Source: Chitinophaga pendula
Lineage (GTDB): Bacteria; Bacteroidota; Bacteroidia; Chitinophagales; Chitinophagaceae
Reading direction: 5' to 3'
Assembly: GCF_020386615.1 (NCBI RefSeq)
Contig: NZ_CP077769.1
Location: forward strand, 6,621,501 to 6,685,500
Length of the DNA stretch: 64,000 nt
The notes under the pieces were generated by a model that did no database searches, was not told the DNA's origin, and saw only the letters and a list, made by a program, of their open reading frames with translations. Shown piece after piece: positions 32,316 to 50,199 of the stretch (the stretch's first letter is position 1; each line of letters opens with the position of its first letter). A program made the translations under genes and the position numbers.

Positions 32316-35300
32316 ATGCATTCAAAAGTTACTCCTAAAGGCTTACTCCAGGCTTTTACCTTCGCTGTTATTTCCTGTATTTGGCTAATTGGTTTGCCAA
32401 CCAACGGAGTGAATGCTCACAGGTTAAGTCTAACCGAACCTGCAGCCAAAACTGCATACAACTCCCTGTATGCCTATCTGGATAATTATAGGAAATGGCA
32501 CCCATATAGCCCACTGAAACAGCCTGCCGGCAACAGAGCAGCTGGCCCACTCTGGAGCTATGCCAATAACCAGCAATTTATTACCGGTGGCCTCGGTTGC
32601 GTAGCCTGCTTCATCGACCATCCGCAAAATGCCGTCGATGGAGATACCACCACCGCCTCCAAGATCGTCGTACCACTGGCAGTAGGCGCCTCCGCCGGAC
32701 AAATACTCAAGTTCCCTGGACAATATCAGGCAGGTGAATACATCGCCATCGACTTGGAAATACCGGATAAAATATATACTAAACAACTGTTGTCTGCCGT
32801 AAAAGTACATACCCTCAATGCCGGTATCGATAATAATGACGCCATTACCCTCGATAATGCACTGATAAGACTACAAGTACTTGGCCTGGGACTTGGTAGC
32901 ACACCAAAATTCCGTGTTATCTTCCCTGCCACAAAAGACTTTGATGCCGTACAGATAGATCTGGCCGCCCTGTTCGCCGAATTTGGTGCACTCCGTATCT
33001 ATGAAGCGACAGCATTTGTACCTGTAGCGATCACCCCGCTTACTCCAACCGTACAAGTAGGAGGAACCGCTAATCTCAACGCAGCCATTAGTCGTATACC
33101 TGGCGCCTCATTTCGCTGGTATAATTCGCCAGCTGGAGGAACCCCTGTATTCACAGGTACTAACTTTATTACACCCCCACTACAAAGACAGACCACCTAT
33201 TATGTAGAAGCTACTTCAACCGTAGATGGATTAAATAGCTATGTGAGAACAGCAGTGACCGTAGGTGTTAGAGGTGGTCAAGGACCATTGTGGAGCTTCG
33301 CCGATACCGAGGAAAGTCCTATCACCGGAGGTATCGCCTGCGCATTATGCAGTGTGGAAAATCCTGAATGGGCCGTTGATGGTGACACGACAACTTCTTC
33401 AAGATTAATACTACCAATAGGAATCGCTACCTCACTAGGACAAAGACTGAAATTTGCAGGGGATTATAAAGCGGGTGACAATATCGCACTGGACCTCGAA
33501 TTACCTGGCCAGATATTAAACGCCCAACTACTCTCCGGCTTAAAAGTCAGAACCTTCAACGGAAATGTAGACAACGCGGATATTGTTACACTGAATACAT
33601 CATTGCTTAAAGTACAACTATTAGGATTAGGTATAGGTAATACGCCGAAATTCCGGGTAGTGATACCCGTAACCAAAGACTTTAATGCCGTACAGGTAGA
33701 TTTACAGGCGCTTATCAGTGGTTTGGGTTCTCTCCGTATCTATGAAGCAACCGCATTCATCCCGGTATCAGTAACACCTGCCGCACCAGCTATAACAAGT
33801 GGCCAATCAGCGATACTCACCCCTGCTATCGATGCGCGTGTATCCTCTCCCACCTATAACTGGTATACAACACCAACTGGCGGTACCCCAGTTTTTACCG
33901 GTAACGGAGCATTTACAACCCCAGCACTGAATACGAATACTACTTATTATGTCGAAGCAGTAGGAGCAGATGGACGGAAAAGTTACGTGCGTACTCCCGT
34001 TACTGTCAAAGTACAAGGCGGCGCTGGTGCTCTCTGGAGTTATGCGAACGACCAGGAATTTAAAACGGGTGGATTGGGCTGCGTTGGTTGCTTTGTTGAC
34101 CAACCAGAAAAAGCCGCAGATGGAGATACAACGACCGCTTCCAGAATAGTCGTACCATTGGCCGTAGGTGCCTCTGCCGGACAGATACTGAAATTCCCGG
34201 GTAAATATAAAGCGGGCGAAAGCATCGCACTCGATCTGGAAATTCCAGATAAAATATATACCAAACAACTGTTGTCTGCAGTAAAGATTCATACACTGAA
34301 TGGTGGAGTAGATAATAATGATGTCATTCAATTAGATAATGCCCTGATAAGATTACAGGTACTTGGACTAGGCTTGGGAAGCACGCCTAAATTTAGGGTG
34401 ATCGTTCCCATAACAAAAGATTTCGATGCCGTACAGGTAGACCTAGCAGCTCTATTTGCCGAGTTTGGTGCACTTCGGATTTATGAAGCCACCGCATTTG
34501 TACCGGCTACTATTACACCCGCAACCCCAACTGCACAGGTAGGTGGAACAGTTAATTTGTCCGCTGTTATCAGCCGTATGCCTGGTAGTACTTTCCGTTG
34601 GTATACATCTCCAAGCGGTGGTGCGGTGGTATTTACTGGAGATAATTTTACAACACCTCCGTTGAGCAGAAGTATTACTTATTACGTAGAAGCCACCTCT
34701 CCTACGGATGGTTTGATCAGTTATGTACGTACGCCGATAACGGTTAAAGTACGTGGCGGGAACGGTCCGCTCTGGAGCTTCGCAGATACGCAGGAAAGTC
34801 CGCTGACAGGCGGTATCGCCTGCGCTCTTTGTTATATAGATAACCCAGACTTCGCAGTAGATGGTGATACAACCACTGCTTCAAGATTAGTACTCCCCGT
34901 AGGTATTGCAGCCTCATTAGGTCAAAGGCTTCAATTTGCCGGAGACTATAAAGCAGGAGATAATATTGCTATCGACCTGGAAGTACCTGATCAGATCATC
35001 AACGCTCAGTTGTTGTCATCAATAAAAGTAAGAACCTTTAACGGAACAACGGATAATGCAGATGTTGTCACCCTAAACAGCTCACTTATTAAGCTACAGG
35101 TACTCGGTATCGGTCTCGGAACAACACCTAAAGTAAGGGTGATCATTCCTGCCACCAAAGATTTTAACGCCGTACAGGTAGACCTGGAAGCATTGGTGAG
35201 TGGCTTGGGGGCATTGCGTATCTATGAAGCATCCGCATTTATCCCCGTTACCGTAACTCCTGCGTCTCCCCTGGTAACAAGTGGTCAACCTGCGACACTG

Positions 35301-38300
35301 ACACCGGCGATCGATGCCCGGGTAGCCAGCCCCTCCTTTAGTTGGTACACTTCCCCGACAGGCGGTACGCCTGTATTTACGGGAACGGGTGCATTTAATA
35401 CCCCTGCATTGACAGCCAACACAACATATTATGTAGAAGCAGTAGCTGCTGCAGGATTGAAGAGCTATGTGAGGACGCCCGTTACCGTAAAAGTACAGGG
35501 GGGTGCAGGCCCATTATGGAGCCATGGAAATGATCAGCAATTTGTTACCGGCGGTCTGGGCTGCGTGGGCTGCTTTGTAGATCAACCCCAAAACGCAGTA
35601 GATGGCGATACAACCACTGCTTCCAGGATCGTCGTACCCTTGGCAGTAGGCGCCTCCGCCGGACAAATACTCAAATTCCCCGGACAGTATAAGGCGGGTG
35701 AAAGCATCGCATTAGATCTGGAAATTCCGGATAAAGTTTACACCAAACAATTACTCTCCGCTATAAAGATCCATACCCTGAATGGAGGTATTGATAATAA
35801 CGATGCCATTCAATTGGATAACTCCCTCATAAGATTGCAGGTACTGGGTCTCGGATTGGGCAGCACCCCCAAATTCCGGGTGATCGTACCGGTAACAAAA
35901 GACTTTGATGCCGTACAGGTAGACCTCCAGGCATTATTCGCCGAATTTGGCGCATTACGTATCTATGAAGCCACTGCCTTTATTCCAGTAGCCATAACGC
36001 CTCCTAGTCCTACTATCCCGGTTGGTAACACAACTAGTTTGTCTGCCGCGATCGGACGTATACCCGGAGCAACCTTCCGTTGGTATACAACAGCTTCCGG
36101 AGGAACTCCTGTCTTTAGCGGAACAAACTTCACAACCCCAGTCCTGAATCGTAGTAAAACATATTATGTAGAAGCAATCTCTCCCGTTGATGGATTGATA
36201 AGTTATGTACGTACCGGTATATCCGTAAAGGTCCGGGGAGGTAATGGCCCGATCTGGAGTTTTGCAGATACACAGCAAAGTCCGATAACCAACGGCGTTG
36301 CCTGCGCATTGTGTTACGTCGACAATCCCGACCTGGCAGCAGATGAGGATACTACCACGGCTTCCCGGCTGGTATTGCCTGTTGGGGTAGCTGCCGGCGT
36401 CGGACAAAAACTTCAATTCGCCGGAGATTATAAAGCAGGTGACTATATCGCACTGGATCTGGAGATCCCCGACCAGGCACTGAGCGCTCAACTGTTAGGT
36501 GGTATTAAAGTCAGAACCTTTAATGGCTCGGCAGATAATGGAGACGCTGTCTACCTGAATAACACAGTAGTAAAATTACAAGTATTAGGACTTGGACTGG
36601 GAACTACACCTAAATTCCGTGCGATCCTACCCGTAACCAGAGACTTTAACGCCGTACAGATAGACCTGGAAGCACTGGTAACAGGTTTAGGTTCATTAAG
36701 AATATATGAGGCTACTGCCTTCATCCCTGTTAAAATAGCACCGGACAACCCACTTATTACAGCCGGACAGACAGCGGCACTTACTGCCTCTATTGACGCC
36801 CGCGTATCAAACCCATCATTTAATTGGTATACTTCTCCGACAGGTGGTACGCCATTATTTACCGGCAATATCTTTACCACTCCTGCTCTTATCAGAAATA
36901 CGATTTATTATGCCGAAGCAGTGTCTCCGGTTACTGGCTTAAATAGCTATGTCCGTACGCCTGTTACAGTTAAAGTTGGTGCCGGACCTGGCATTATCTG
37001 GAGTTTTGGACAAGATCAGGAAAGCCCAATTACAGGTGGAGTAGCCTGTATCGGATGCGCCGTATTGGACCCGCTGAATGCTTCAGATGGTGACACCACA
37101 ACAGCATCCACTTTCTCTGTACCACTTGGAATTGCAGGATCGGTTGGACAACTCATAAAATTCCCGGGTGTTTATCAACCGGGAGATAGTGTAGTATTAC
37201 TCATGGAAGCACCGTCAGCAAACCTGAGCGGTGTGATCCTGCCTAAGATACAGGCACAGACTTATTATAATGCAACACAAGGGGCTGCCGTATCCAATAA
37301 TGACCTTGTGACACTAAATGCCGCAGTGATCAAATTACAACTGCTGGGTATCGGTGTAGGAGGAAACCAGAAATTCAGGGTAAGTTTCCCTGTTAATGCA
37401 ATTTTTGATGCAGTAAGAGTCGACCTGTCTGGCTTAATATCAGCAGCGGGTAATGTAAAGTTGTACGAAGCGGCAGCGACCATCCCAATTACAGTAACAC
37501 CCTCTCCTGCTACAACACCTTATCGTACCCCGGTAGCATTGACACCGTCAATAAGATTGAATAACCCGGCTACCCCGACATTCACATTCAGGTGGTATAC
37601 TACGCCTACTGGTGGGGTGCCATTACCAGGAGCAGGAGCGCCGTTTACCACACCTCCATTGAGTAGGAATACCACCTATTATGTTGAAGCAGTTGATCCC
37701 ACCGGTATAGTAAGCCTGGCCCGTACTGCCGTGCCAGTGCGGGTAGTTGGTGGAAATGGGCCTATCTGGAGTTTCGGTATAGAACAAAATACATCTACCG
37801 GAGGAATAGCTTGTGCCCTGTGCACTGTAAACAATGCACCTCTCGCCGTTGACCAGGATACTACCACGGCGTCCAGACTAATAACCGGACTTTCTGTGGC
37901 GGGCTCTGTAGGACAGAATATAAGATTCCCCGGCACTTATCAGCCTGGCGACAGCATTGTGCTGATACTCGGCACCAAAACAGATCCTTTAGCTTCACTG
38001 TCATTACTGAATAGTATTCAGGTTACGACCTTCAACAATGGTACAAGCAATAATGACGCGATTACCATTAATCCTAGCCTGCTGAGCCTGCAGCTACTGG
38101 GTGGAGATACCATTAAGAAATTCCGTGTTAGCATCCCTGCTACCAAGGCCTTCGATGCCGTACAAGTGGATCTCAACTCCCTGGTAGGCGTATCCGGGTC
38201 CCTCGATATATTTGAGGCAGTAGCTATGAAGCCAGTAACAGTAACTCCTAACCCGGCTAATATAACAGCCGGACAAACAGCTACGTTTACCGCTTCTATT

Positions 38301-41300
38301 GCTAATATCGCAGATATTGTTTTCAATTGGTATGAAACTCCTACTGGCGGAGCACCGATAGCCACCGGAGCTACCTTTACGACACCCCCACTATATGCAA
38401 ATAAGACGTATTACGCAGAAGGCATCTCGCCCACAGATGGTTTAACAAGCTTCCAGCGTACCGCTGTACAAGTCATCGTAACCCCTGTAAATGGAGGTAA
38501 CTCGCTTACTTGTAATAGCCCGACTACCTCCCCGGATGCAGGTAATGGTGCACAGGGCCTTTGCGTGGGTTGTTATGTAGAAAATGCATCGCTGGCAACA
38601 GATGATAAATTGGAAACAGGTTCTACACTCCATACGGTATTAGGTTTGCTGGGCGGCTATGTCCGTCAGACCCTTGTGTTTGATGCCGGAAAAGGTGGTA
38701 AAGCAGGCGATAGCGTTCGTATTGGTTTAGGATCCGCTACTGGATTATTAGACCTGGGTGTACTGAGCGGTATTCAGATAAGTACCTATAATGGTGCTAC
38801 TCCTAATAATGATCTCTTCACCGTTACCTCCGATCTGCTCACTATTAAATTATTGATGGGAGTACAACAGAATGCAGTCACCTTCAAAGCAACAAAAGAC
38901 TTCGACAGGATCGAAGTAAGATTCAATGCTGGTGTAGCTGCATTATTGAGTGCCTTAAATGTGTATTATGCAAAAATACTTGTACCGGAACCGCAGGTAA
39001 CAGCAACCGATGTACGCGTATGTAGTGGTCAGACTGCTACATTGTCTGCTACCGGACCTGTTGGTCAAACCTATCGTTGGTATACCACCATGACCGGTGG
39101 AACTCCCTTATTTACCGGCGCGAACTTCATTACACCAGCCATCACGGCTAATATTACCTATTATGTAGAAGCAGTATCTGCTACCGGTTGTGCCAGCGAT
39201 ACCCGGAAACCCGTTACAGTAACAGTCGGATTACCAAGTGTAAACGTAAATCCGCCTTCTGCTACTGTGACTGCCGGACAAACTCCAACCTTTAACGTGT
39301 TGAACCCCAACCCAACATATCGCTATGACTGGTATACACAACCAGTGGGTGGTACAGCGGTGTTTGTCGGACCACAATTCACTATTCCTGCTGTATCTGC
39401 TAATATTACCTATTATGTAGAAGCAACAGATCCAACTGCCGGTGCAGGTTGCAAAAGCTTACGTACACCAGTACCAGTTACCCTGAATGGTGGTGGCGGA
39501 CCACTACAGCCGGGAGATATTGACTGCGGTGGCGCAACAAGTCAACAAAGCAACAGCGGTGGTATCTGTGTAGGATGTTATGTAGAAAAACAAGACTCCG
39601 CCGTAGATAACAGCACCAAAACAGCGTCCGTAATGCATACCGTACTAGGGGTAGGTTCTTACATTGAACAGACGTTGATCTTCCCAACCCGAGGGAAACA
39701 GGGTGATAGCGTGCGTATCGGGCTCGGCTTCCCAACATCTTTGCTGGATCTTGGCCTGCTGACGTCAATACAAGTTTCTTCTGCGAATGGAGGAACAGCT
39801 AACAATGATATGGTAGCCCTCAATTCACCGTTGATCCATTTAAGTTTGCTCAATGGTAATACAGATGCTATACTGATCTTCGCACCGGGTAATAACTTCG
39901 ATAGAGTAACCGTGCGGTTAAATGGACTGGTAAGCGCCCTGACTGCACTGAAAATTTACTACGCACAGGCATTCGCTGGAAAACCAACAGTGGAAAAAGA
40001 GAATATATATGTTTGCCAGGGTGGATCCGCTACCCTCAAGGCTACAGGGCCAGGCACCAGCTTCCGCTGGTATACCCAGCCAACTGGTGGTACAGCGATC
40101 GCTACAGGCGCAAATTATACTATTAACAACGTAATATCTAACGCTATATACTATGTAGAGGCGGTAAGTGGTGCTGGCTGTGCAAGCGCCGCGAGGAAAG
40201 CTGTAAATGTATTTGTCGGATTACCAATACCAACGGTAACGCCGACAGTACAAACAATTAATAGCGGTGCTGCTGCTACCTTCACCGTCAACAACCCTAA
40301 TACGGCATATGAATACAATTGGTTTGATGCGCCGGTAGGTGGTAATGAGGTGGCACATGCAAAAACTTCATTTACAACGCCTCCACTGACTGCGTCCAAG
40401 ATCTATTATGTAGAAGCGAAAGATCCGTCTACCAACTGTACAACTCCTACCAGGGTGGCGGTACGGGTAGATATTAATATGCCGTCAGATCCGACGCCTT
40501 GTAGCTTTGCCACCCAACAGCAAAGTCCAATTATCACCGGAATTTGCGTGCTGTGTGGTGTAAACGATCCTGCATTCGCAATTGATGCAAATGCTAACTC
40601 TGCATCTACTATTAGCGCCGTAGTTGGTGCCGCAGGATATGTGGGTCAGTTGCTGAAATTCGATCATACATATCCGGTCGGCGATAGTATTACACTTGAT
40701 CTGGAAATACCTGGACAGCTGGCAGATGTACAATTGCTGGGTGGAATAAGGGTAGAAACGTATAATGGCACAACTGCCAACGGCGACGCAATAAATGTAG
40801 CAGGTGGCGGAATCCTATCTCCACTGGTACGCCTCACCCTGCTCAACACCGGCAATAAATTCCGTATCACATTACCGGCAACAAAAGAATTTAATGGAGT
40901 GCTGGTAAGTATTAATGGTCTGGTGACATTAGTGACCAACCTCAAAGTATACTTTGCAGCGGTGGTAACGCCAAGACCAGTAGTGACTGCTCCTATTGTA
41001 AATACATGTAGTGGCACAGCAGCAACGCTGACAGCTACAGTGTCTGATGGAGCAGTAGTGAACTGGTATATAGATGCTGTGGGAGGAACTCCGGTAGGTA
41101 CAGGTACTACATTCGTAACGCCGGTACTCACCAGCTCCCTGACTTACTACGCAGAGGCCAGCCGCTTTGGTTGCGCATCCCCGGTTAGAGTACCAGTATC
41201 AGTACAGGTAGGAGGAAGCCCGGCTGTACCAACCGCTGTAGGCAAGAGCATATGCGCTGGCGAAACGGTAACGCTGCTGGCTACAGCTCCCGCTGGCGTC

Positions 41301-44300
41301 AACTTCGCGTGGTATAGTGCCCCGACAGGTGGAACCTTACTAGCCTCCACACCTGCTTACACTACAAATGTACTGACCGCTGATACCGCATTCTATGTGG
41401 AATCAGACAATAATGGTTGTAAGAGTGTCACCAGGACCAGGGTGCCAGTGACTGTCAATGCAGCTCCAACCGGTCTGACGGTGTTCCCGATGGGCACATC
41501 CATATCCCGTGGTCAGTCCGCACAATTTACAGCCAGTGCCACCGGGACAAATATTAACTATAAGTGGTATAATGCTGCAGGTGATTCCGTGGCAACAGGC
41601 GCAGTATTCAATACAGGACCGCTGCAGGCAAGCACGACCTATGCAGTAGAAGCGTCTACCGCAACAGGCTGTAAAGCCGCACAACGAGTTACCGTAAGCG
41701 TAACCGTACTCGGCGGAGGAAACGACCTGCCATGTGATGCCGCCACTACCCAAACAAATGGAGCAAATGGCGTATGTGTAGGTTGCTATGTAGAAAACCC
41801 GTCACTTGCAGTAGATAGCAGCACACAAACAGGATCTACCTTACATGTCATTCTCGGATTGTTAGGTGGTTACACTCAACAGACGCTTATCTTCCCGAAT
41901 GTAAGTGAGCTAAATGATAGCGTACAGGTAAGCTTGTCATTTCCTGCCAGCCTGGCAGATATCGGATTGCTTTCAAGTATTCAGATAGGTTCTTACAATG
42001 GAGCACAATCCAATAATGACTTTGTCGCTATAAATGATCCACTCGTGAAAGTCGTACTGTTGAGTGGAAACCAGCAGGCGATGTTAGGCTTCAAACCTAA
42101 AGGACTGTTTGACAGAATTGAGATCAGACTTAACTCTGGCGTAGCAAGCGCTCTGAGTGCCGTAAATATCAATTATGCAAGCCGTCTTGTAGGTCCTGCA
42201 ATAGTACAGGGCACCACAATATGTGCTGGCACCCGCGCCTCACTCCAGGCAAATGGTCCGGCAAATGTTAAATTCAATTGGTATTCTCAGGCTATCGGTG
42301 GTACGCCGATATTTACCGGTAATACCTTCCAGACACCTGCTCTCCAAAGTACCACTACTTATTATGTGGAAGCAGTGAAAACCAGCCTGGATTGCCCGAA
42401 CTTATTGAGGGTACCGGTAGTCGCAACCGTAACACCGGTTCCGGATGCTCCGCAATTGGATACGGCTACTATAACGGTTTGTGCAGGTGGGACCGCCACG
42501 TTTAATGTCGACAATGTCGCTGTAGGAGTAACCTATCGCTGGTATACTACCCCAACTGCCGGAACACCAGTATTTGAGGGCGTTTCCTTCACGACACCAG
42601 CATTGTCTGCCACCACTGTTTATTATATAGAAGCATCCAATGGACAGAATTGTGCAAATACAACCCGCACTCAGGTTACTGCAAATGTAACGGCACAACC
42701 ACCCGTACCGGTAGTTACCCCATCTAGTGCCAGTATTTGTGCTAATACCACTACCCAACTGGTAGCATCGTCTACCGCAACTGGTGTGGTATTCCGTTGG
42801 TATACTACCGCGGTGGGTGGTACCTCCATCTTTGAAGGAGCTAATTTCACCACACCGGTATTAACGGCAAATACTACTTACTATGTGGAAGCCGCGACTG
42901 GAAATTGTGCTAGTGCCACCCGTGCAGCTGCAGTAGTTACAGTAAATCCGACACCAGAGGCACCTAACGTAACGGTAGTGCCGGCCGGAGGAATTGTAAC
43001 CTCTGGACAAACAGCAACATTGACAGCTACTTCCGCAACGCCTGGTGTTACATTTAAATGGTATACAGTGGCAACAGGCGGAAGTCCCGTATTCACTGAT
43101 AATCCATTCGTAACCCCTGCATTAACCAGCAATATCACTTACTATGTAGAAGCCGTTACCGCTACCGGAGCATGCCCGAGCGCACGTACCGCTGTTAGCC
43201 TAAGTGTCAATCCAGTGCCCAACCCTAGTTGTGACTTTGCAAATGCACAGACTAACAGTACCCAGGCGATATGTGTGCTCTGTGATGTTCTGAATGCAGC
43301 GAATACAACAGACGCTGATCTGAACAACTTCTCTACCTTGTCTATCCCGCTGGGAGCTGGCGATGGTGGCGTTGAGCAAACACTTATATTCCCGCAACCT
43401 GCTGCTAAAGGCGATAGTGTAAGAATAACGGTTGAGCTTCCGGCACAAATACTGGATGCTGCCATCAGATCTGCAATAGAAGTATCCAGCTTCAATGGCG
43501 CTACCGCCAATGGAGACGCTGTCCTGCTGGATAACGCTACTATTAATGTTAGCTTGTTGTCGGGCGCCAGTAAATACATGATCACATTTGCTCCCGGCGC
43601 GACCTACGACCGGGTTCGGGTAAGGCTAAAAGCAGGTATTGTTTCCGCATTGCTGAGATTGAACATCTATTATGCAACACAGCAGGTAGCTGCACCAAAC
43701 GTTAGCATAAGAAATGTAGATATCTGTAGCGGTACTAAAGCAACCCTGAATGCGACAGTAACGCCAGTAGCGAAACTTGAATGGTATGATGCGCCAGTAG
43801 GTGGTAATAAAGTCGGTGAGGGAACAGCATTTGAAACACCAGTGCTGACAACTACCACCACTTACTACGTACAAAGCGTTCGGTTAAGTAACAACTGCGT
43901 AAATCCAAACCGCGTGTCAGTAACCGTTAACGTCCTGCCTGCACTGCCTGCTCCAACAGCAAATAATGCCACGATTTGCGCAGGTCAGTCTGCGACCCTG
44001 ACAGCCACCGCGGCAGGTAGCGGCGTACAGCTAAGATGGTTCAGCGCAGCTGTAGGAGGAACACTCCTGTTTACAGGCCCAACCTACGCTACCAATGTAC
44101 TGTCGGCTGATACCGCATTCTATGTAGAAGCCTATAATGGAGCTTGCGCCAGTCCGGCCAGAACAAAAGTAAATGTGACCTTAAATGCTGGCGCGCCGAT
44201 GCCAACATTGCAAACCAATAATGTTACAATTTGTCAGGGACAAACAGCCACGTTCACTGTAACATCCAATACAACAGGTATAACCTATAGATGGTATACC

Positions 44301-47072
44301 TCACTGGTAGGAGGTACGGAGATATTCACCGGGCCTGTGTATATAACACCAGTGTTGAATACGACGACTGTATACTATGTGGAGGCCGTAAATGCATCGT
44401 CTGCATGTACTGCTCCGACGGCAAGAGTGACGGCGACAGCCAACGTCGCTCCTGTACCACCTGCTCCACAACCGGTTAGCGCCAGCGTGAGAGCTTGTGC
44501 CGGACAGGATGCTGTACTGGGAGTATTGGATCCCCAGGCGAACCTGGTATATGAATGGTACAGCGCACCAACAGGTGGAACACTGGTATCATCAGGCCCT
44601 GCCTTCACCGTGAAAGCAGTAACCGCCGCTGTAGACTACTATTTACAGGCAGTAAATAGTAGCGGATGTGCAAATGCCGGTGGCAGAATAAAAGTGAGCA
44701 TATCGGTTGACCCGGCTCCGGCTACTCCGACAGTAGCAGCTGCTGCTGTAAGCGTATGTCGCGGTTCCGGTGCAACACTCAGTGTGCAGAATCCTAATGC
44801 ATCATTTACATACAGATGGTTCGATGCCCCAAGCGGCGGAACATTACTGTTCACCGGAGCGGTATACAATACCGCTGCTTTGATTACAAATGCTGACTTC
44901 TATGTAGAGGCTAGCAATGGTAATTGTGGTAGCACAGTAAGAGCCAGGGTAAGTGTAACGATCGATCAGACCGTTCCTAACCCCGTGCCGGAAGCTGCCA
45001 ATGTTACTGTTTGTACAGGAAGCTCCGCTACCTTGAAGGTAATATCCTCAACAACGGGTGTTGACTATAAATGGTATACACAAGCTACCGGAGGCGTTGC
45101 AGTGTTCACTGGACCTCAGTTTGTGACGCCGGCGTTGACAACCACAACTATCTATTACGTAGAAGCGGTGAGTACTACCTCACAGTGCATCAACGCCGGA
45201 GGAAGAGTGACTATTACCGCTACCGTTGTACCGGCTCCTGTAGTGCCGGTGCCAGTAGCTGGAAGCGTGAGAGTATGTGCCGGCAGAGATGTAATGCTGG
45301 CTGTACAGAATCCTCAACCAAATGTAATCTATCAGTGGTTCGATGCAGCAACAGGAGGTACCTTGGTATTGACAGGAGCTTCGGTGACAGTGCCGGCAGT
45401 GACCGCCAATATTGACTACTATGTACAGGCAACAATAGGTAATGGAGGGTGCAGCAGTGCAACCAGAGCCAAAGTCAGCGTAGTAGTAGACGATGCACCA
45501 GCTACTCCTGACGTCGCAGCCACAAATGTGATAGTATGTGTGGGTGGTACAGCAACATTTAATATTCTCAATCCGAATCCAGCCCTGACATATCGTTGGT
45601 ACGATGCACCGGCTAATGGAACCCTCGTATCGACAGGTACGCAATACACAACGGCTGCCTTAAATCAGACAACAACATTCTATGTTGAAGCGCTGAATGG
45701 AAGCGGTTGTAGCAGCACGGCGAGAATAGGAGTGACAGCACAGGTCGTAACAACGATAGATGCTCCTGTGGCATCTGGTGCTACCATCTGTAGTGGTCAA
45801 TCGGCTGTTCTCCAGGTTGCCAGCCCACTGGCAGGAATTACTTATAACTGGTATACTACAACCAGCGGTGGTACGCCGGTGTTCAGCGGAACAAACTTTA
45901 CCACCAATCCGCTCACAGCAAGTATCACCTACTATCTGGAGGCATCTTCCAACGGAGGTTGTATAAGCGCTAGCCGTACACCAGTATTAGTTACGGTTAA
46001 TAATGTACCGGCAACACCGGCAGTGGCTAATGCTACAGTGCCTGCTTGTATAGGAGAAACAGCCTCCTTGTCAGTACAAAACCCGGATCCGGCATTAACT
46101 TATCGCTGGTATGATGCACCAACTGGTGGTACACAGGTAGCCACAGGTGCTACTTTCACTACGCCGTCAGTGAATGTTAACCAGATGTACTATGTAGAGG
46201 CTGTGAACGCCAATGGATGTAGTAGCGCGGTAAGAACAGGTGTAAGTGTAACTGTAGGACCGCCTCCCGGAAATATAACCGTGACCGGCAACGCGGCGGC
46301 AATATGCCCTGGTGGTACCGCTTCTCTGACAGCAACATCAGCTACTGCCGCTGCAGGATTCCGTTGGTATTCAGCTGCGACAGGTGGAACACTGCTGGCA
46401 ACAGGCGCTAACTTTACTACGCCAGCTCTTACCACCACCACCACATACTATGTGGAAGCCTTTACTACTGGTGGATGTGCAAGTAGTACAAGAACAGCTG
46501 CCGAAGTGAAAGTATTCGCGGCACTTGCCACACCAACAGTTACAGTAGGAACTACAACACCGAATAGCGTCACCTTTACCTGGACTGCCGTGCCAAACGC
46601 AGTGCGCTATGAAGTAAGCCGCGACGATGGCATCACTTTCATAACACCAAGCTCCGGTGCCAGTGGTCTGTCTCATACAATAACAGGACTGTCTCCAAAC
46701 CAGGAGGTAACTATCAGGATACGCGCAGTAGGTACTAATCCATGTGAAACGAGCCAGCTCTCTGCTGCAGTAACCGGTAGAGCTACTAATCCGGCAGGTG
46801 ATAATGTTTACATACCAAACATGTTCAGCCCGAACGGAGATGGTGTAAATGACGTCTTCACAATATATGGTAGCACTATCCTGTCTATGGAAATGTATAT
46901 CTATAACCAATGGGGACAACAAGTCGCTGTCGTAAAAGACCAACGCCGCGGATGGGATGGTACTATGAGTGGTACTAAACAACCGGCAGGTGTATACGTA
47001 TATGTCGTACAGGTAAGACTACAAAACGGTACTACCGTAACCAGAAAAGGTAATGTAACAATCATCAGATAA
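32316..47072 (+). CDS. Giant T9SS surface protein: 13 CxxC modules, 30 Ig-like domains, type B sorting domain
   Basis: 4918 residues. The signal peptide runs to about residue 34. From residue 77 a ~150-residue module recurs 13 times. Each starts near LWSYAN or an equivalent, carries CxxC (first Cys at 95, 342, 589, 836, 1083, 1330, 1578, 1833, 2083, 2418, 2744, 3154, 3653), then usually an AVDGDTTTAS-like segment, and ends near ALRIYEATAF. This suggests a beta sandwich resembling carbohydrate-binding folds, but I recognise no named family. Modules are separated by CHU_C-associated Ig-like domains (FRWYxxPxGGTPVFTG, YYVEA), 30 in all: one after each of modules 1-8, then 2, 2, 3, 4 and 11. An FN3-like domain is at about 4737-4828. 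The gliding-motility C-terminal domain (IPNMFSPNGDGVNDVF) is at 4829-4918. Predicted surface adhesin or filament. The next genes encode PorP/SprF and an OmpA-like protein. The family of the Ig and C-terminal domains is sure; ligand and function are unknown. Confidence 0.95.
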   Translation: MHSKVTPKGLLQAFTFAVISCIWLIGLPTNGVNAHRLSLTEPAAKTAYNSLYAYLDNYRKWHPYSPLKQPAGNRAAGPLWSYANNQQFITGGLGCVACFIDHPQNAVDGDTTTASKIVVPLAVGASAGQILKFPGQYQAGEYIAIDLEIPDKIYTKQLLSAVKVHTLNAGIDNNDAITLDNALIRLQVLGLGLGSTPKFRVIFPATKDFDAVQIDLAALFAEFGALRIYEATAFVPVAITPLTPTVQVGGTANLNAAISRIPGASFRWYNSPAGGTPVFTGTNFITPPLQRQTTYYVEATSTVDGLNSYVRTAVTVGVRGGQGPLWSFADTEESPITGGIACALCSVENPEWAVDGDTTTSSRLILPIGIATSLGQRLKFAGDYKAGDNIALDLELPGQILNAQLLSGLKVRTFNGNVDNADIVTLNTSLLKVQLLGLGIGNTPKFRVVIPVTKDFNAVQVDLQALISGLGSLRIYEATAFIPVSVTPAAPAITSGQSAILTPAIDARVSSPTYNWYTTPTGGTPVFTGNGAFTTPALNTNTTYYVEAVGADGRKSYVRTPVTVKVQGGAGALWSYANDQEFKTGGLGCVGCFVDQPEKAADGDTTTASRIVVPLAVGASAGQILKFPGKYKAGESIALDLEIPDKIYTKQLLSAVKIHTLNGGVDNNDVIQLDNALIRLQVLGLGLGSTPKFRVIVPITKDFDAVQVDLAALFAEFGALRIYEATAFVPATITPATPTAQVGGTVNLSAVISRMPGSTFRWYTSPSGGAVVFTGDNFTTPPLSRSITYYVEATSPTDGLISYVRTPITVKVRGGNGPLWSFADTQESPLTGGIACALCYIDNPDFAVDGDTTTASRLVLPVGIAASLGQRLQFAGDYKAGDNIAIDLEVPDQIINAQLLSSIKVRTFNGTTDNADVVTLNSSLIKLQVLGIGLGTTPKVRVIIPATKDFNAVQVDLEALVSGLGALRIYEASAFIPVTVTPASPLVTSGQPATLTPAIDARVASPSFSWYTSPTGGTPVFTGTGAFNTPALTANTTYYVEAVAAAGLKSYVRTPVTVKVQGGAGPLWSHGNDQQFVTGGLGCVGCFVDQPQNAVDGDTTTASRIVVPLAVGASAGQILKFPGQYKAGESIALDLEIPDKVYTKQLLSAIKIHTLNGGIDNNDAIQLDNSLIRLQVLGLGLGSTPKFRVIVPVTKDFDAVQVDLQALFAEFGALRIYEATAFIPVAITPPSPTIPVGNTTSLSAAIGRIPGATFRWYTTASGGTPVFSGTNFTTPVLNRSKTYYVEAISPVDGLISYVRTGISVKVRGGNGPIWSFADTQQSPITNGVACALCYVDNPDLAADEDTTTASRLVLPVGVAAGVGQKLQFAGDYKAGDYIALDLEIPDQALSAQLLGGIKVRTFNGSADNGDAVYLNNTVVKLQVLGLGLGTTPKFRAILPVTRDFNAVQIDLEALVTGLGSLRIYEATAFIPVKIAPDNPLITAGQTAALTASIDARVSNPSFNWYTSPTGGTPLFTGNIFTTPALIRNTIYYAEAVSPVTGLNSYVRTPVTVKVGAGPGIIWSFGQDQESPITGGVACIGCAVLDPLNASDGDTTTASTFSVPLGIAGSVGQLIKFPGVYQPGDSVVLLMEAPSANLSGVILPKIQAQTYYNATQGAAVSNNDLVTLNAAVIKLQLLGIGVGGNQKFRVSFPVNAIFDAVRVDLSGLISAAGNVKLYEAAATIPITVTPSPATTPYRTPVALTPSIRLNNPATPTFTFRWYTTPTGGVPLPGAGAPFTTPPLSRNTTYYVEAVDPTGIVSLARTAVPVRVVGGNGPIWSFGIEQNTSTGGIACALCTVNNAPLAVDQDTTTASRLITGLSVAGSVGQNIRFPGTYQPGDSIVLILGTKTDPLASLSLLNSIQVTTFNNGTSNNDAITINPSLLSLQLLGGDTIKKFRVSIPATKAFDAVQVDLNSLVGVSGSLDIFEAVAMKPVTVTPNPANITAGQTATFTASIANIADIVFNWYETPTGGAPIATGATFTTPPLYANKTYYAEGISPTDGLTSFQRTAVQVIVTPVNGGNSLTCNSPTTSPDAGNGAQGLCVGCYVENASLATDDKLETGSTLHTVLGLLGGYVRQTLVFDAGKGGKAGDSVRIGLGSATGLLDLGVLSGIQISTYNGATPNNDLFTVTSDLLTIKLLMGVQQNAVTFKATKDFDRIEVRFNAGVAALLSALNVYYAKILVPEPQVTATDVRVCSGQTATLSATGPVGQTYRWYTTMTGGTPLFTGANFITPAITANITYYVEAVSATGCASDTRKPVTVTVGLPSVNVNPPSATVTAGQTPTFNVLNPNPTYRYDWYTQPVGGTAVFVGPQFTIPAVSANITYYVEATDPTAGAGCKSLRTPVPVTLNGGGGPLQPGDIDCGGATSQQSNSGGICVGCYVEKQDSAVDNSTKTASVMHTVLGVGSYIEQTLIFPTRGKQGDSVRIGLGFPTSLLDLGLLTSIQVSSANGGTANNDMVALNSPLIHLSLLNGNTDAILIFAPGNNFDRVTVRLNGLVSALTALKIYYAQAFAGKPTVEKENIYVCQGGSATLKATGPGTSFRWYTQPTGGTAIATGANYTINNVISNAIYYVEAVSGAGCASAARKAVNVFVGLPIPTVTPTVQTINSGAAATFTVNNPNTAYEYNWFDAPVGGNEVAHAKTSFTTPPLTASKIYYVEAKDPSTNCTTPTRVAVRVDINMPSDPTPCSFATQQQSPIITGICVLCGVNDPAFAIDANANSASTISAVVGAAGYVGQLLKFDHTYPVGDSITLDLEIPGQLADVQLLGGIRVETYNGTTANGDAINVAGGGILSPLVRLTLLNTGNKFRITLPATKEFNGVLVSINGLVTLVTNLKVYFAAVVTPRPVVTAPIVNTCSGTAATLTATVSDGAVVNWYIDAVGGTPVGTGTTFVTPVLTSSLTYYAEASRFGCASPVRVPVSVQVGGSPAVPTAVGKSICAGETVTLLATAPAGVNFAWYSAPTGGTLLASTPAYTTNVLTADTAFYVESDNNGCKSVTRTRVPVTVNAAPTGLTVFPMGTSISRGQSAQFTASATGTNINYKWYNAAGDSVATGAVFNTGPLQASTTYAVEASTATGCKAAQRVTVSVTVLGGGNDLPCDAATTQTNGANGVCVGCYVENPSLAVDSSTQTGSTLHVILGLLGGYTQQTLIFPNVSELNDSVQVSLSFPASLADIGLLSSIQIGSYNGAQSNNDFVAINDPLVKVVLLSGNQQAMLGFKPKGLFDRIEIRLNSGVASALSAVNINYASRLVGPAIVQGTTICAGTRASLQANGPANVKFNWYSQAIGGTPIFTGNTFQTPALQSTTTYYVEAVKTSLDCPNLLRVPVVATVTPVPDAPQLDTATITVCAGGTATFNVDNVAVGVTYRWYTTPTAGTPVFEGVSFTTPALSATTVYYIEASNGQNCANTTRTQVTANVTAQPPVPVVTPSSASICANTTTQLVASSTATGVVFRWYTTAVGGTSIFEGANFTTPVLTANTTYYVEAATGNCASATRAAAVVTVNPTPEAPNVTVVPAGGIVTSGQTATLTATSATPGVTFKWYTVATGGSPVFTDNPFVTPALTSNITYYVEAVTATGACPSARTAVSLSVNPVPNPSCDFANAQTNSTQAICVLCDVLNAANTTDADLNNFSTLSIPLGAGDGGVEQTLIFPQPAAKGDSVRITVELPAQILDAAIRSAIEVSSFNGATANGDAVLLDNATINVSLLSGASKYMITFAPGATYDRVRVRLKAGIVSALLRLNIYYATQQVAAPNVSIRNVDICSGTKATLNATVTPVAKLEWYDAPVGGNKVGEGTAFETPVLTTTTTYYVQSVRLSNNCVNPNRVSVTVNVLPALPAPTANNATICAGQSATLTATAAGSGVQLRWFSAAVGGTLLFTGPTYATNVLSADTAFYVEAYNGACASPARTKVNVTLNAGAPMPTLQTNNVTICQGQTATFTVTSNTTGITYRWYTSLVGGTEIFTGPVYITPVLNTTTVYYVEAVNASSACTAPTARVTATANVAPVPPAPQPVSASVRACAGQDAVLGVLDPQANLVYEWYSAPTGGTLVSSGPAFTVKAVTAAVDYYLQAVNSSGCANAGGRIKVSISVDPAPATPTVAAAAVSVCRGSGATLSVQNPNASFTYRWFDAPSGGTLLFTGAVYNTAALITNADFYVEASNGNCGSTVRARVSVTIDQTVPNPVPEAANVTVCTGSSATLKVISSTTGVDYKWYTQATGGVAVFTGPQFVTPALTTTTIYYVEAVSTTSQCINAGGRVTITATVVPAPVVPVPVAGSVRVCAGRDVMLAVQNPQPNVIYQWFDAATGGTLVLTGASVTVPAVTANIDYYVQATIGNGGCSSATRAKVSVVVDDAPATPDVAATNVIVCVGGTATFNILNPNPALTYRWYDAPANGTLVSTGTQYTTAALNQTTTFYVEALNGSGCSSTARIGVTAQVVTTIDAPVASGATICSGQSAVLQVASPLAGITYNWYTTTSGGTPVFSGTNFTTNPLTASITYYLEASSNGGCISASRTPVLVTVNNVPATPAVANATVPACIGETASLSVQNPDPALTYRWYDAPTGGTQVATGATFTTPSVNVNQMYYVEAVNANGCSSAVRTGVSVTVGPPPGNITVTGNAAAICPGGTASLTATSATAAAGFRWYSAATGGTLLATGANFTTPALTTTTTYYVEAFTTGGCASSTRTAAEVKVFAALATPTVTVGTTTPNSVTFTWTAVPNAVRYEVSRDDGITFITPSSGASGLSHTITGLSPNQEVTIRIRAVGTNPCETSQLSAAVTGRATNPAGDNVYIPNMFSPNGDGVNDVFTIYGSTILSMEMYIYNQWGQQVAVVKDQRRGWDGTMSGTKQPAGVYVYVVQVRLQNGTTVTRKGNVTIIR
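32550..34031 (+). repeat. A-B higher-order repeat, copy 1 (1482 bp)
   Basis: Modules 1 (type A, GCVACF) and 2 (type B, ACALCS), each with one Ig-like domain. The unit is measured from the codon before the conserved Trp of LWS; 494 codons, in frame. Confidence 0.9.
34032..35513 (+). repeat. A-B higher-order repeat, copy 2 (1482 bp)
   Basis: Modules 3 (type A, GCVGCF) and 4 (type B, ACALCY). Exactly the same length as copy 1. Protein similarity is much stronger than base similarity at third positions. Confidence 0.9.
35514..36995 (+). repeat. A-B higher-order repeat, copy 3 (1482 bp)
   Basis: Modules 5 (type A, GCVGCF) and 6 (type B, ACALCY). Again exactly 1482 bp. After it the spacing becomes irregular (248, 255, 250, 335 residues and more). 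Confidence 0.9.
43690..46520 (+). repeat. Tandem array of 11 Ig-like domains
   Basis: Eleven consecutive ~86-residue Ig-like domains after the last CxxC module, each with a Cys early (ICSG or VCxG type) and a Cys near the end (for example GCSS, NCGS, GCAS). This is the longest uninterrupted run in the protein and leads straight into the FN3-like and sorting domains. Confidence 0.85.
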
Positions 47073-47153: not shown

Positions 47154-48158
47154 ATGAAGAGGAATATTACAATATTGGCGATGCTGTTCTGTGTATTGGC
47201 GACACAACTTGCAAAAGCCCAGACAGATCCTCATTTTTCACAATATTATGCCTATCCGCTTTGGCTAAATCCTGCCCTAACTGGTATTCTTGACGGTGAC
47301 TTCAGAGTCAGCGGTAATTATCGTACCCAGTGGAACAACTTTGGTAAAGCTTTTTCGACAGCAGGGGTATCCTTCGATGCCGCTACACAGAAAAACATGG
47401 GTGTTGGCCTGAATATAATGAATCTCTCGGCCGGTGATGCGGGGTATAATTACTTTAATGCAATGGCCAGCTTCTCCTATAGCGGGGTGAAATTTGGCGC
47501 TACGGGAACTACCAGATTGGTATTTGGGATACAGGCTGGTATCATCAATAGAAGGGTGGACCCGGCAAAATTTCAATCCGGCAGTCAGTACAATCCCGTC
47601 ATTGGTTTTGATCCCAGTATTTTCCACGGAGAGAATATTAACACGACAACATCTACCGTTTTTGATGCATCTGCGGGCGTGATGTTATTCGATGGGAATC
47701 CCAATCACCGCTTTAATCCCTTCGTCGGATTCTCCGCAGGGCACCTAACACAACCGGAAGACCCATTTTTAGAGAATGATACCCGTAAATATCCATTACG
47801 TTACTTGGTGCATGGTGGAACCAGGATACAATTGTCGGAGGTTTTTGGAATTACCCCCCATGCATTACACATGCGGCAGGGCAATGCAAATGAGACCGTC
47901 GTTGGAGCTTATGTACAATTTACTGTCAACCCTGAATTTGATCTCCTCGGTGGAGTTAACTATCGTATTAAAGATTCCGCAATTCCTTTTGCAGGCTTCC
48001 ATTTTAAGAATTTTACACTTGGCCTGAGCTATGACGCTAACACTTCCAATCTACGTAGACTAGTAAACGGCAGCAATAGTTTCGAAGTGTCATTATCCTT
48101 TATCAGTCGTAAACGCAGAATATTGAATGAAGAATACTTTATCTGTCCAAGATTGTAA
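47154..48158 (+). CDS. PorP/SprF family type IX secretion accessory outer-membrane protein
   Basis: 334 residues. Signal peptide (ITILAMLFCVLATQLAKAQ), then the family hallmark TDPHFSQYYAYPLWLNPALT, followed by a beta-barrel-type body with FRVSGNYRTQWNNFGKAFST and a C-terminal strand-rich region (FKNFTLGLSYDANTSNLRRL). In Flavobacterium johnsoniae SprF is needed for secretion and surface attachment of the giant adhesin SprB, which carries the same type B sorting domain and is encoded next to it. The arrangement here is the same, so this protein most likely serves the giant protein upstream. The OmpA-like gene follows 40 bp later. Confidence 0.94.
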   Translation: MKRNITILAMLFCVLATQLAKAQTDPHFSQYYAYPLWLNPALTGILDGDFRVSGNYRTQWNNFGKAFSTAGVSFDAATQKNMGVGLNIMNLSAGDAGYNYFNAMASFSYSGVKFGATGTTRLVFGIQAGIINRRVDPAKFQSGSQYNPVIGFDPSIFHGENINTTTSTVFDASAGVMLFDGNPNHRFNPFVGFSAGHLTQPEDPFLENDTRKYPLRYLVHGGTRIQLSEVFGITPHALHMRQGNANETVVGAYVQFTVNPEFDLLGGVNYRIKDSAIPFAGFHFKNFTLGLSYDANTSNLRRLVNGSNSFEVSLSFISRKRRILNEEYFICPRL

Positions 48159-48198
48159 GTAAATGTTCCGCCTCATCGAAAAAACAAATGGCACCCTC

Positions 48199-50199
48199 AT
48201 GAAAAAAATTGCACTGTTCTGCCTGATATCTCTTATTTGGGCGATAAAACCCTCTAATGCACAATACGTTTACGACTATAAACGTACTGCAGATGTATAT
48301 TTCGCATCTGGAGATTACTACTCTTCCGCCCAATACTACAATAAAGCATTGGGGACGTTTAATATTAAACCAGAGCAGATACTGCCTTACGCCGTAGAAA
48401 AAAAAGGAAAAGAACCTGCCAGGATCAAAGATTATGAAACAGTAGTTTATCGGCTGGCAGAATCCTATCGCCTGTATGCAGATTTTGGAAATGCAGAAAA
48501 AACATACGAACAGGTAGTTGGATTTAATAATAACACCCTGTTTCCATTAGCAAGATATTGGTATGGCGTATGTCTGAGAGCAAATCGAAAATATCAGGAA
48601 GCACTGGATCAATTTAAACAATTCAAACAGACGTATACAAATACGGATGAGATATCTGCCAGAGCTGCATTAGAGATCGCCAGCTGTGAATTTGCAATCG
48701 AACAGGCTGCTGCCGCTCCACGATTTACCCTTACAAAATTAGGAGGGAATGTAAATGAAGGTGGCGCTAACTATGCAGCGGCAATAATAGATCCCAATAC
48801 ACTCTTATATACATCTTCAAGACCAGAAAAAGCAATTATCGAGTCTAAGAATGATAAAAAGAAAAAGGAAAACCCCTACGTCAATGACTTTTATATTGCA
48901 GAAGGAAGTGCTACTAATTTTGATAAAGTAAGTAAAGTAAATATCCCGGTAGTAAAAGGAATGCATCAGGGGGTTGGAATGACTGCGCCAGATGGTAATA
49001 GCCTGTACCTGACCCGTTGGTCTTATAAGAATGGAGAACGGGTCGCCGCTATCTATATGAGCAAAAAACAGGGTGCCGGCTGGACTGAACCCCAAGCCTT
49101 GGGTGCCAATGTGAATGTGACCGGATATAGTTCTATGCAACCGTTCGTGACAGATGACGGTAAGTACCTGTTGTTTGCCTCTAACAGACCTGGAGGGATG
49201 GGTAAATACGATTTGTGGTATTGCCCACTATCGAATGGTACACCAGGTGCCGCGAGGAATATGGGAACCGGTATCAACTCCCGCGACGAAGATCAGGCAC
49301 CTTTTTATGATGCAGAAAAGAAGGCGTTGATGTTTAGCTCTGATGGCCGTATTGGACTAGGAGGACTGGACTTTTACGTTAGTGAAGGAGACTTCAGTAA
49401 CTGGACGCCTCCACGTAATATGGGAGCCCCAATGAACTCGTCTAAAGACGATATTTATTATACCGCAGCTAATAAGGAACATCCGCTGGCCGCTGGATTT
49501 ATCAGTTCAGATCGCGAGTCAGTTTGTTGTCTGGAAGTATTCGCTATTAAAAAGAATTCTAAGATAGTAAGCGGGCAAGTGCTGGATTGTGACGATGGAC
49601 TACCCCTTACCGGCGCCAGAGTGACGCTGCTGGATACCACCGTGCAGAAAGTATTACAGCAGTTAACACTTGACGAAACCGGGCGATACAGCTTTGAAGT
49701 CGATCCGCTTAAAAAGTACAAGGTGCTGGCAGAAAAAGAAAACTATTTCTCTAAAGCCATCTACTTCTCTACAGAAGAATTAACTAAAGTGGACTCACTT
49801 GTAAACCCGACTATATGTCTGAAGAGATATGAGATCGGTAAACCGATCATATTGAAAGATATCTATTACGATTTCAATAAGGCTACGCTAAGAGAGCAAT
49901 CTAAAATAGTACTTGATACCGTCGTATCTATAATGCAGGATAATCAGAATATCGTGATAGAAATGAGCGCCCATACGGACAGTAAAGGGTCTGATGCATA
50001 TAATATGAAACTCTCACAGGCCAGAGCGCAGGCATGTGTTGACTATCTTATCAGCAGAGGAATTCCTTCATCCAGGATGATCGCTAAAGGATATGGGGAA
50101 ACACGCCCAATAGCGCCGAATACAATAAACGGTAAAGACAATCCCGACGGAAGACAACTTAATCGTAGAACGGAATTTAAAGTACTACGGAACTTGTAA
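48199..50199 (+). CDS. OmpA family protein with TPR, PD40 and carboxypeptidase-regulatory domains
   Basis: 666 residues from ATG at 48199 (MKKIALFCLISLIWAIKPSN, a signal peptide); an ATG at 48163 would add 12 residues ahead of it and is unlikely. TPR-like repeats lie at about 25-155 (FASGDYYSSAQYYNKALGTF, DFGNAEKTYEQVVGFNNN). PD40/WD40-like beta-propeller strands are at about 185-440 (TSSRPEK, LLFASNRPGGMGKYDLWYCP, ALMFSSDGRIGLGGLDFYV). A carboxypeptidase-regulatory-like domain is at about 455-535 (SGQVLDCDDGLPLTGARVTL). The OmpA domain at about 555-666 has peptidoglycan-contact residues in MSAHTDSKGSDAYNMKLSQA and RQLNRRTEFKV. This architecture typically accompanies PorP/SprF genes and would tie the surface structure to peptidoglycan. 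Last gene of the three-gene cassette. Confidence 0.94.
   Translation: MKKIALFCLISLIWAIKPSNAQYVYDYKRTADVYFASGDYYSSAQYYNKALGTFNIKPEQILPYAVEKKGKEPARIKDYETVVYRLAESYRLYADFGNAEKTYEQVVGFNNNTLFPLARYWYGVCLRANRKYQEALDQFKQFKQTYTNTDEISARAALEIASCEFAIEQAAAAPRFTLTKLGGNVNEGGANYAAAIIDPNTLLYTSSRPEKAIIESKNDKKKKENPYVNDFYIAEGSATNFDKVSKVNIPVVKGMHQGVGMTAPDGNSLYLTRWSYKNGERVAAIYMSKKQGAGWTEPQALGANVNVTGYSSMQPFVTDDGKYLLFASNRPGGMGKYDLWYCPLSNGTPGAARNMGTGINSRDEDQAPFYDAEKKALMFSSDGRIGLGGLDFYVSEGDFSNWTPPRNMGAPMNSSKDDIYYTAANKEHPLAAGFISSDRESVCCLEVFAIKKNSKIVSGQVLDCDDGLPLTGARVTLLDTTVQKVLQQLTLDETGRYSFEVDPLKKYKVLAEKENYFSKAIYFSTEELTKVDSLVNPTICLKRYEIGKPIILKDIYYDFNKATLREQSKIVLDTVVSIMQDNQNIVIEMSAHTDSKGSDAYNMKLSQARAQACVDYLISRGIPSSRMIAKGYGETRPIAPNTINGKDNPDGRQLNRRTEFKVLRNL

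What the first reader, a model, noticed from the sequence alone, without database searches (positions are those of the whole stretch)
32544..43680. A thirteen-copy CxxC module with no family I can name
Each ~150-residue module of the giant protein has Cys-x-x-Cys near its start, most then have an AVDGDTTTAS-like segment, a beta-strand pattern ending in LRIYEA or NIYYA, and conserved lengths. All 13 keep both Cys although the rest varies widely (GCVGCF, ACALCY, ICVLCG, VCVGCY). The DGDTTTAS text recalls jelly-roll sugar-binding domains, but I recognise no CxxC version. A redox, metal-binding or isopeptide-like role is possible. This is the best candidate here for an undescribed domain.
Basis: partly seen in the sequence, partly recalled or inferred. 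Interest (0 to 1): 0.8.

Follow-up and report, generated by a model that had tools for sequence, protein, structure and literature searches.

The report
Uncatalogued adhesin domain with swappable disulfide
A bacterium of the Bacteroidota group carries a giant surface protein built partly from thirteen copies of a domain missing from the domain catalogues searched; its cysteine pair looks like an ordinary stabilising bond whose partner has been exchanged several times in evolution, not a chemical active site.

Summary
In detail: ORF 32316-47072 (4918 aa) has 13 CxxC modules, both Cys kept in 13 of 13. No Pfam or NCBIfam family fits the module. Relatives occur in 35 of 395 phylum genomes and 33 of 147 family genomes, own genome included.

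CxxC is not the hallmark. Of 1187 scorable relatives, 771 have C1+C2 (CxxC), 159 C1 plus a Cys about 30 residues on (C3), 237 none, 20 one only; C2+C3 never co-occur. This reads as a structural disulfide with exchangeable partner, not a redox or metal site. The Ig before a module lacks its first Cys in 483 of 483; its orphan second Cys occurs only together with a Cys at the module's start (293 versus 0), suggesting an inter-domain disulfide, which the AlphaFold model of the pair did not confirm (pTM 0.62).

The operon (adhesin, PorP/SprF, PorE-like gene) resembles a described static-adhesin set. Ligand binding is untested.

The parts
32316..47072 (+). giant T9SS type B surface protein, 4918 aa: signal-peptide-like N-terminus, 13 CxxC modules, Ig_7 domains, weak fn3-like piece, type B C-terminal domain
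   Evidence: PF19081 30 stretches; CHU_C 65.7 bits, cut-off 27; fn3 18.2 bits, below its cut-off 25; TIGR04131 52.6 bits, cut-off 35; signal peptide judged by eye only
32544..33020 (+). module 1 (CVAC)
33285..33761 (+). module 2 (CALC)
34026..34502 (+). module 3 (CVGC)
34767..35243 (+). module 4 (CALC)
35508..35984 (+). module 5 (CVGC)
36249..36725 (+). module 6 (CALC)
36993..37487 (+). module 7 (CIGC)
37758..38234 (+). module 8 (CALC)
38508..38990 (+). module 9 (CVGC), with N-terminal extra Cys (codon 2066) that has no obvious partner
39516..39986 (+). module 10 (CVGC), N-terminal Cys codon 2404
40494..40973 (+). module 11 (CVLC), N-terminal Cys codon 2729
41721..42200 (+). module 12 (CVGC), N-terminal Cys codon 3140; the module whose structure was predicted
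43218..43685 (+). module 13 (CVLC), N-terminal Cys codon 3639
39450..39527 (+). proposed inter-domain disulfide: orphan Ig Cys (codon 2379) to module 10 N-terminal Cys (codon 2404)
   Evidence: inference
40437..40502 (+). proposed inter-domain disulfide: codon 2708 to codon 2729
   Evidence: inference
41670..41735 (+). proposed inter-domain disulfide: codon 3119 to codon 3140
   Evidence: inference
43173..43232 (+). proposed inter-domain disulfide: codon 3620 to codon 3639
   Evidence: inference
46812..47072 (+). type B sorting (CHU_C) domain and stop
47154..48158 (+). PorP/SprF-like shuttle; C-terminus ...FICPRL
48163..50199 (+). PorE-like protein: OmpA, PD40 and CarboxypepD_reg over their cut-offs, TPR matches below theirs
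   Evidence: 'PorE-like' by domain make-up only

Best explanation
The module is a so far uncatalogued family of about 145-160 residue jelly-roll (galactose-binding-like) beta-sandwich domains, used as repeated, probably ligand-binding units in giant type IX secreted surface adhesins of Bacteroidota. The CxxC is a structural disulfide. It pins the end of the first long strand, shortly before the conserved D-x-D/N-x-x-T loop. Evolution has swapped its partner several times: Cys1 bonds either to Cys2 three residues on, or to Cys3 about 30 residues on in a neighbouring strand, or the bond is lost altogether. In modules 10-13 of the window a further Cys at the module's start most likely bonds to the orphan Cys of the Ig domain before it, stapling two domains together. 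The protein is exported by the T9SS with its adjacent PorP/SprF shuttle and, by gene order, held in a static complex through the PorE-like third gene. Shown by computation: family, copy number, Cys pairing pattern, predicted fold, conserved operon. Inferred: oxidation state, the disulfides themselves, adhesion, static anchoring, sugar binding.
Against: No coordinates were available, so no Cys-Cys distance was measured. The coupling score of C1 with C3 itself ranks only 2026 of 10296, and apart from 9-43 (rank 13) the couplings on the C1/C3 strand diagonal rank 83 to 182, with others off it in the same block. The independent-pairs tests on the tree do not reach significance (median p 0.125 for C1 with C2, 0.0625 for C1 with C2 or C3, 0.25 for C3 with lack of C2; few supported branches). 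Of the 20 odd modules, 6 of 6 C2-only and 8 of 14 C1-only have a single Cys in the module body. AF2 of Ig plus module gave pTM 0.62, so the staple is not confirmed by the model. The structural matches are remote: Foldseek TM-scores of 0.33-0.55 by query length. Profile-profile comparison with F5/8C aligned only the D....T motif at probability 3%. Sugar binding has no direct evidence.
Confidence: 0.77

Rival explanations
1. CxxC is a catalytic or regulatory redox pair (thiol-disulfide exchange) on the cell surface.
For: CxxC spacing is that of oxidoreductases (recalled); 13 of 13 window modules keep it.
Against: Predicted fold is a jelly roll, with no thioredoxin-like chain among the 50 rows shown in either fold listing. 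159 of 1187 relatives have, in place of C2, a Cys about 30 residues on, and 237 have no Cys in the three columns, which a dithiol active site would not tolerate.
Confidence: 0.06
2. CxxC is half of a metal site (zinc or iron).
For: CxxC knuckles are common in zinc sites (recalled).
Against: The module body holds only two Cys in 764 of 771 CxxC modules, and no column has His in more than 10.4% of modules, so conserved Cys or His ligands to complete the site are missing. A metal shared between modules is not excluded.
Confidence: 0.04
3. The module is merely a spacer or stalk unit like the Ig_7 domains, with no ligand site.
For: Tandem repetition with near-copies; PMC8286594 (passages read) raises the possibility that adhesive and stalk roles are interchangeable. 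No F-lectin motif in 1251 modules.
Against: D at column 25 is 95% conserved just after a short helix, outside the predicted strands; many structural neighbours are carbohydrate-binding modules; a 284-aa protein has a single module and otherwise only a tail resembling a sorting domain (judged by eye).
Confidence: 0.3
4. The Cys at the module's start does not bond to the preceding Ig but links protein molecules to each other or stays free.
For: 48 of 483 modules, including window module 9, have it without an Ig Cys; AF2 left the orientation open.
Against: The Ig orphan Cys never occurs without it (0 of 483), and total Cys is even in 71 of 74 giants.
Confidence: 0.15

Closest known systems
F5/8 type C (discoidin, PF00754) and CBM32 domains
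   Same: Predicted jelly-roll fold; an Asp....Thr loop near the start, the only part hhalign aligned.
   Different: No Pfam match; profile-profile probability 3%; the two Trp invariant in 13 own-genome F5/8C domains have no counterpart in the module consensus; Cys1 with swappable partner.
F-type lectins / CBM47 (lectinolysin lectin domain 3le0, fucose-binding modules 2j1r, 2j22)
   Different: 8-14% identity; the fucose-binding motif as I recall it occurs in 0 of 1251 modules.
Gingipain K cleaved-adhesin domains K1 (4itc) and K3 (3m1h)
   Different: 3-4% identity; not tested for common descent.
SprB-type and Fjoh_3952-type T9SS type B adhesins
   Same: Giant repetitive protein, type B sorting domain, adjacent PorP/SprF shuttle; PorE-like third gene as in the static Fjoh_3952 set.
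   Different: The shuttle has one Cys in a FICPRL end, not the C-x-C of SprF (PMC12635249 section 6).

Membership tests
F5/8 type C (PF00754) | scores over the curated Pfam cut-off | tested here: not met
   no PF00754 match in the giant at E<=0.01 or in 23 diverse modules at E<=1; the same family found 19 over-cut-off copies elsewhere in this genome
F5/8 type C (PF00754) | jelly-roll beta-sandwich fold | tested here: met
   predicted model, (predicted, not solved)
F5/8 type C (PF00754) | profile-level homology | tested here: inconclusive
   hhalign aligns 13-14 columns only, probability 3%
F-type lectin (CBM47) | fucose-binding H/R...D...R motif (recalled) | tested here: not met
   0 of 1251 modules
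F-type lectin (CBM47) | fold | tested here: met
thiol-disulfide oxidoreductase | thioredoxin-like fold | tested here: inconclusive
   model is mainly beta with two helices of 4 or more residues; no thioredoxin-like chain among the rows shown, but a missing match is not proof
thiol-disulfide oxidoreductase | invariant CxxC | tested here: not met
   771 of 1187
T9SS type B cargo | type B C-terminal sorting domain | tested here: met
   TIGR04131 52.6 bits over 35; CHU_C 65.7 over 27
T9SS type B cargo | cognate PorP/SprF shuttle beside it | tested here: met
   47154-48158; 5 of 5 relatives scanned; that it is the cognate shuttle is inferred
static (Fjoh_3952-type) adhesin | PorE-like gene in the operon | tested here: met
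   OmpA, PD40 and CarboxypepD_reg over cut-off at 48163-50199; sequence of Fjoh_3950 itself not compared
static (Fjoh_3952-type) adhesin | immobile at the cell surface | not testable with these tools
   needs microscopy

The most novel reading that the evidence does not exclude
The module is a new lectin family of Bacteroidota surface fibres, carried on a chain braced throughout by disulfides: in each Ig-module joint of the Cys type the Ig has given up its own internal disulfide and uses the left-over Cys to staple itself to the next module. Such joints would be locked against pulling force, while the Cys-free Trp-type joints of modules 1-8 would stay flexible.
Probability: 0.35. Interest if true: 0.7.

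Novelty: new variant of a known kind. Interest (0 to 1): 0.52.

Why it matters
Giant T9SS adhesins are large and poorly annotated. A domain family with more than a thousand collected copies and no Pfam or NCBIfam model can be given a profile, a predicted fold and a testable binding hypothesis. The either-or disulfide partner is a clean natural example of disulfide migration within one fold, and the Ig-module staple is a precise prediction about how such fibres resist force.

Tried and rejected
Sequence search of solved structures with the module profiles: nothing credible (best E 0.078 and 0.18). PHROGs: best E 0.038, no family. hhalign against 13 F5/8C domains of the same genome: motif only. 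AF2 of Ig plus module 12 (47 of 141 candidate rows used): both domains confident, orientation not. Direct coupling of C1 with C3: rank 2026 of 10296, not support by itself. Independent-pairs tests on the tree: too few supported pairs. Paper searches that found nothing on the module; this covers only the held open-licence library, and of the papers listed only abstracts, sections or passages of three were read. InterPro, UniProt annotations and AlphaFold DB were not available; one of 78 relatives (P0015) bears the source name 'CBM6 domain-containing'. Membership outside Bacteroidota was not searched systematically. Thioredoxin-like folds do not appear among the rows shown; no search was aimed at them.

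Rows dropped: of 1295 module hits, those under 110 aa and exact duplicates were dropped (1251 left), and 64 with a gap in a Cys column were excluded before the 1187 count. The tree used 206 of 1216 modules (60% identity, window modules kept) and a slightly wider window for C3. One search used the 1033 hits with at least 110 residues upstream; of 1011 distinct ones, 528 had no Ig hallmark upstream. Ig domains were recognised by a YYVEA-like text pattern, not by a profile. In one search at most 9 candidates per genome were scored, so its counts are lower bounds.
Full report
What is there. The window's ORF 32316-47072 (+) encodes 4918 aa with 13 C-x-x-C motifs at codons 95, 342, 589, 836, 1083, 1330, 1578, 1833, 2083, 2418, 2744, 3154 and 3653. 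The 13 modules align with ten invariant columns. Pfam finds 30 stretches of Ig_7 (PF19081) and a CHU_C sorting domain over their cut-offs, and nothing over cut-off for the modules; the positions of all 30 stretches were not listed, but 23 modules scanned alone, five of them from the window, did not match Ig_7. NCBIfam finds only the type B sorting domain over cut-off. The 23 modules alone gave nothing better than E 0.018 in Pfam and 0.017 in NCBIfam. Modules 1, 3, 5 and modules 2, 4, 6 are two alternating near-copies spaced exactly 247 residues apart, so part of the array grew by duplication of a two-module unit.

Distribution. The window lies in a 7.66 Mb one-contig genome that holds one further copy in a 675-aa frame. 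A profile of the 13 modules matched 35 of 395 genomes of the phylum, own genome included and one of them by a 36-position match only. A broader profile matched 33 of 147 genomes of the family, own genome included. Protein searches gave 78 proteins, the named ones nearly all Hymenobacter, and 74 giants, the named ones Chitinophaga, Pedobacter, Flavobacterium and Filimonas, one of them (P0080, unnamed source) 96% identical in the searched module. A genome scan, capped at the best 80 of 139, gave 79 loci, Flavobacterium or Flavobacteriaceae by title in all but one, titled [Flexibacter] sp.. So this is a widespread Bacteroidota domain, not a curiosity of one genome.

What the cysteines do. I collected 1295 modules from 152 proteins, 109 loci and the window; 1251 distinct ones of at least 110 aa remained and 1187 had letters in all three Cys columns. 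C1+C2 (CxxC) 771; none 237; C1 plus C3, about 30 residues on, 159; C1 alone 14; C2 alone 6; C2 with C3 never, C3 alone never. At 50% identity the counts are 79, 33, 9, 6 and 3 of 130. If C2 and C3 were independent, 130 modules with both were expected among the 944 with C1. For the 50% set, all nine C3 falling among the 15 C1 modules without C2 has a chance of 4.7e-9 if rows were independent, or 4.5e-4 if only four origins are counted. The module body holds 0 or 2 Cys in 1163 of 1187. Of the 20 odd modules, 6 C1-only ones hold a second Cys elsewhere (for example P0073 column 40, P0053 column 9, P0055 column 7); the other 8 C1-only and all 6 C2-only have a single Cys. On a FastTree tree of 206 modules, built without the Cys columns and with few columns for so many rows, the C1+C3 state needs 5 changes, at least 4 on starred branches, and the Cys-free state 15, at least 8. 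Pairs of related rows give no significant sign test (median p 0.125 for C1 with C2, 0.0625 for C1 with C2 or C3, 0.25 for C3 with lack of C2). Mean-field coupling analysis puts C1-C2 second of 10296 pairs; C1-C3 itself ranks 2026. Couplings between columns 5-13 and 38-47 favour one antiparallel diagonal (9-43 rank 13; 6-47, 5-47, 7-45, 13-38, 8-44, 11-41 ranks 83 to 182), which places C1 opposite column 40, next to C3 in column 42; some pairs in the same block lie off it, such as 15-48 at rank 67. The simplest reading is a structural disulfide with one fixed and one exchangeable partner. It argues against a redox pair and against a zinc knuckle (two Cys only in 764 of 771 CxxC modules, no column with His above 10.4%). 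The most constant of the residues checked is not a Cys but the Asp of the DGDxxT loop (95%, against 79% and 63% for the two Cys).

A second, inter-domain bond. Modules 9-13 have another Cys where modules 1-8 have Trp. Of 483 distinct modules preceded by an Ig hallmark, 293 have both this Cys and a Cys at the second Ig position, 142 neither, 48 only the module Cys, and none only the Ig Cys; the first Ig Cys was absent in all 483. A recount with a control set gave, in the 74 giants, first Ig Cys absent in 335 of 335 Ig before modules, while 876 of 919 other Ig had both Cys; in the Flavobacterium loci 127 of 127 and 203 of 208; in the window 12 of 12 and 18 of 19. Total Cys after residue 35 is even in 71 of 74 giants. 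By hand, from the positions, 70 of the 72 Cys after the signal-peptide-like region of the window protein fall into pairs; codons 2066 (module 9) and 4810 are left over. An Ig to module disulfide explains this, but the sequences are related to each other, the AlphaFold model of the pair had pTM 0.62 and so gives no support for a fixed joint, and no coordinates were available to measure distances.

Operon and likely role. Directly downstream lie a PorP/SprF protein (47154) and a protein with PD40, CarboxypepD_reg and OmpA domains over cut-off and TPR matches below it (48163). A PorP_SprF gene and an OmpA/PD40 gene follow the giant in 5 of 5 relatives scanned with Pfam; a sixth was judged by ORF size and C-terminus only. 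Paillat et al. 2025 (PMC12618676; abstract and passages read) report that type B substrates use cognate PorP/SprF shuttles, that SprB and others glide, and that Fjoh_3952, whose operon includes a PorE-like gene, stays static. By gene order the window protein is of the second kind; this is inference. The class of long adhesin and stalk proteins is described in PMC8286594 (passages read).

Verdict. Real, widespread, and without a model in the libraries searched; fold type known by prediction only; the CxxC best explained as an exchangeable structural disulfide; ligand unknown. I rate it a new variant of a known kind.

Noticed in passing
window 48138-48158; L155, L156, L158, L159, L160: The PorP/SprF-like shuttle ends in a lone-Cys tail, [FI]CPRL, in the window and 5 of 6 relatives; the one of L157 lacks it. 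SprF's C-tail C-x-C forms a disulfide with GldK (PMC12635249: abstract, section 6 and passages read), so this lone Cys might be a covalent anchor too.
   Followed up: partly
window 32544-36725: Modules 1/3/5 and 2/4/6 alternate as two closely similar types with a constant 247-residue spacing: a two-module unit present three times.
   Followed up: partly
window codons 2066 and 4810: Two Cys without an obvious partner; 2066 stands at the switch from Trp-type to Cys-type modules, and 48 of 483 modules show the same state.
   Followed up: no
G000:C1:3668789-3669232 (L022): A 14th module in this genome, in a 675-aa frame with Ig-like and LamG-like parts and a sorting tail (parts judged by eye); it has an extra Cys (GCDSL) also seen in the first module of P0079.
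   Followed up: no
window 29110-31689: 859-aa protein with a weak NACHT match (25.6 bits, cut-off 26.7), just upstream on the other strand; possible defence-type NTPase.
   Followed up: no
L045 (G095) and L049 (G154): In these two relatives a module-bearing frame is interrupted by a stop codon in the six-frame reading (one search counts one stop in a G095 match); not examined further.
   Followed up: no
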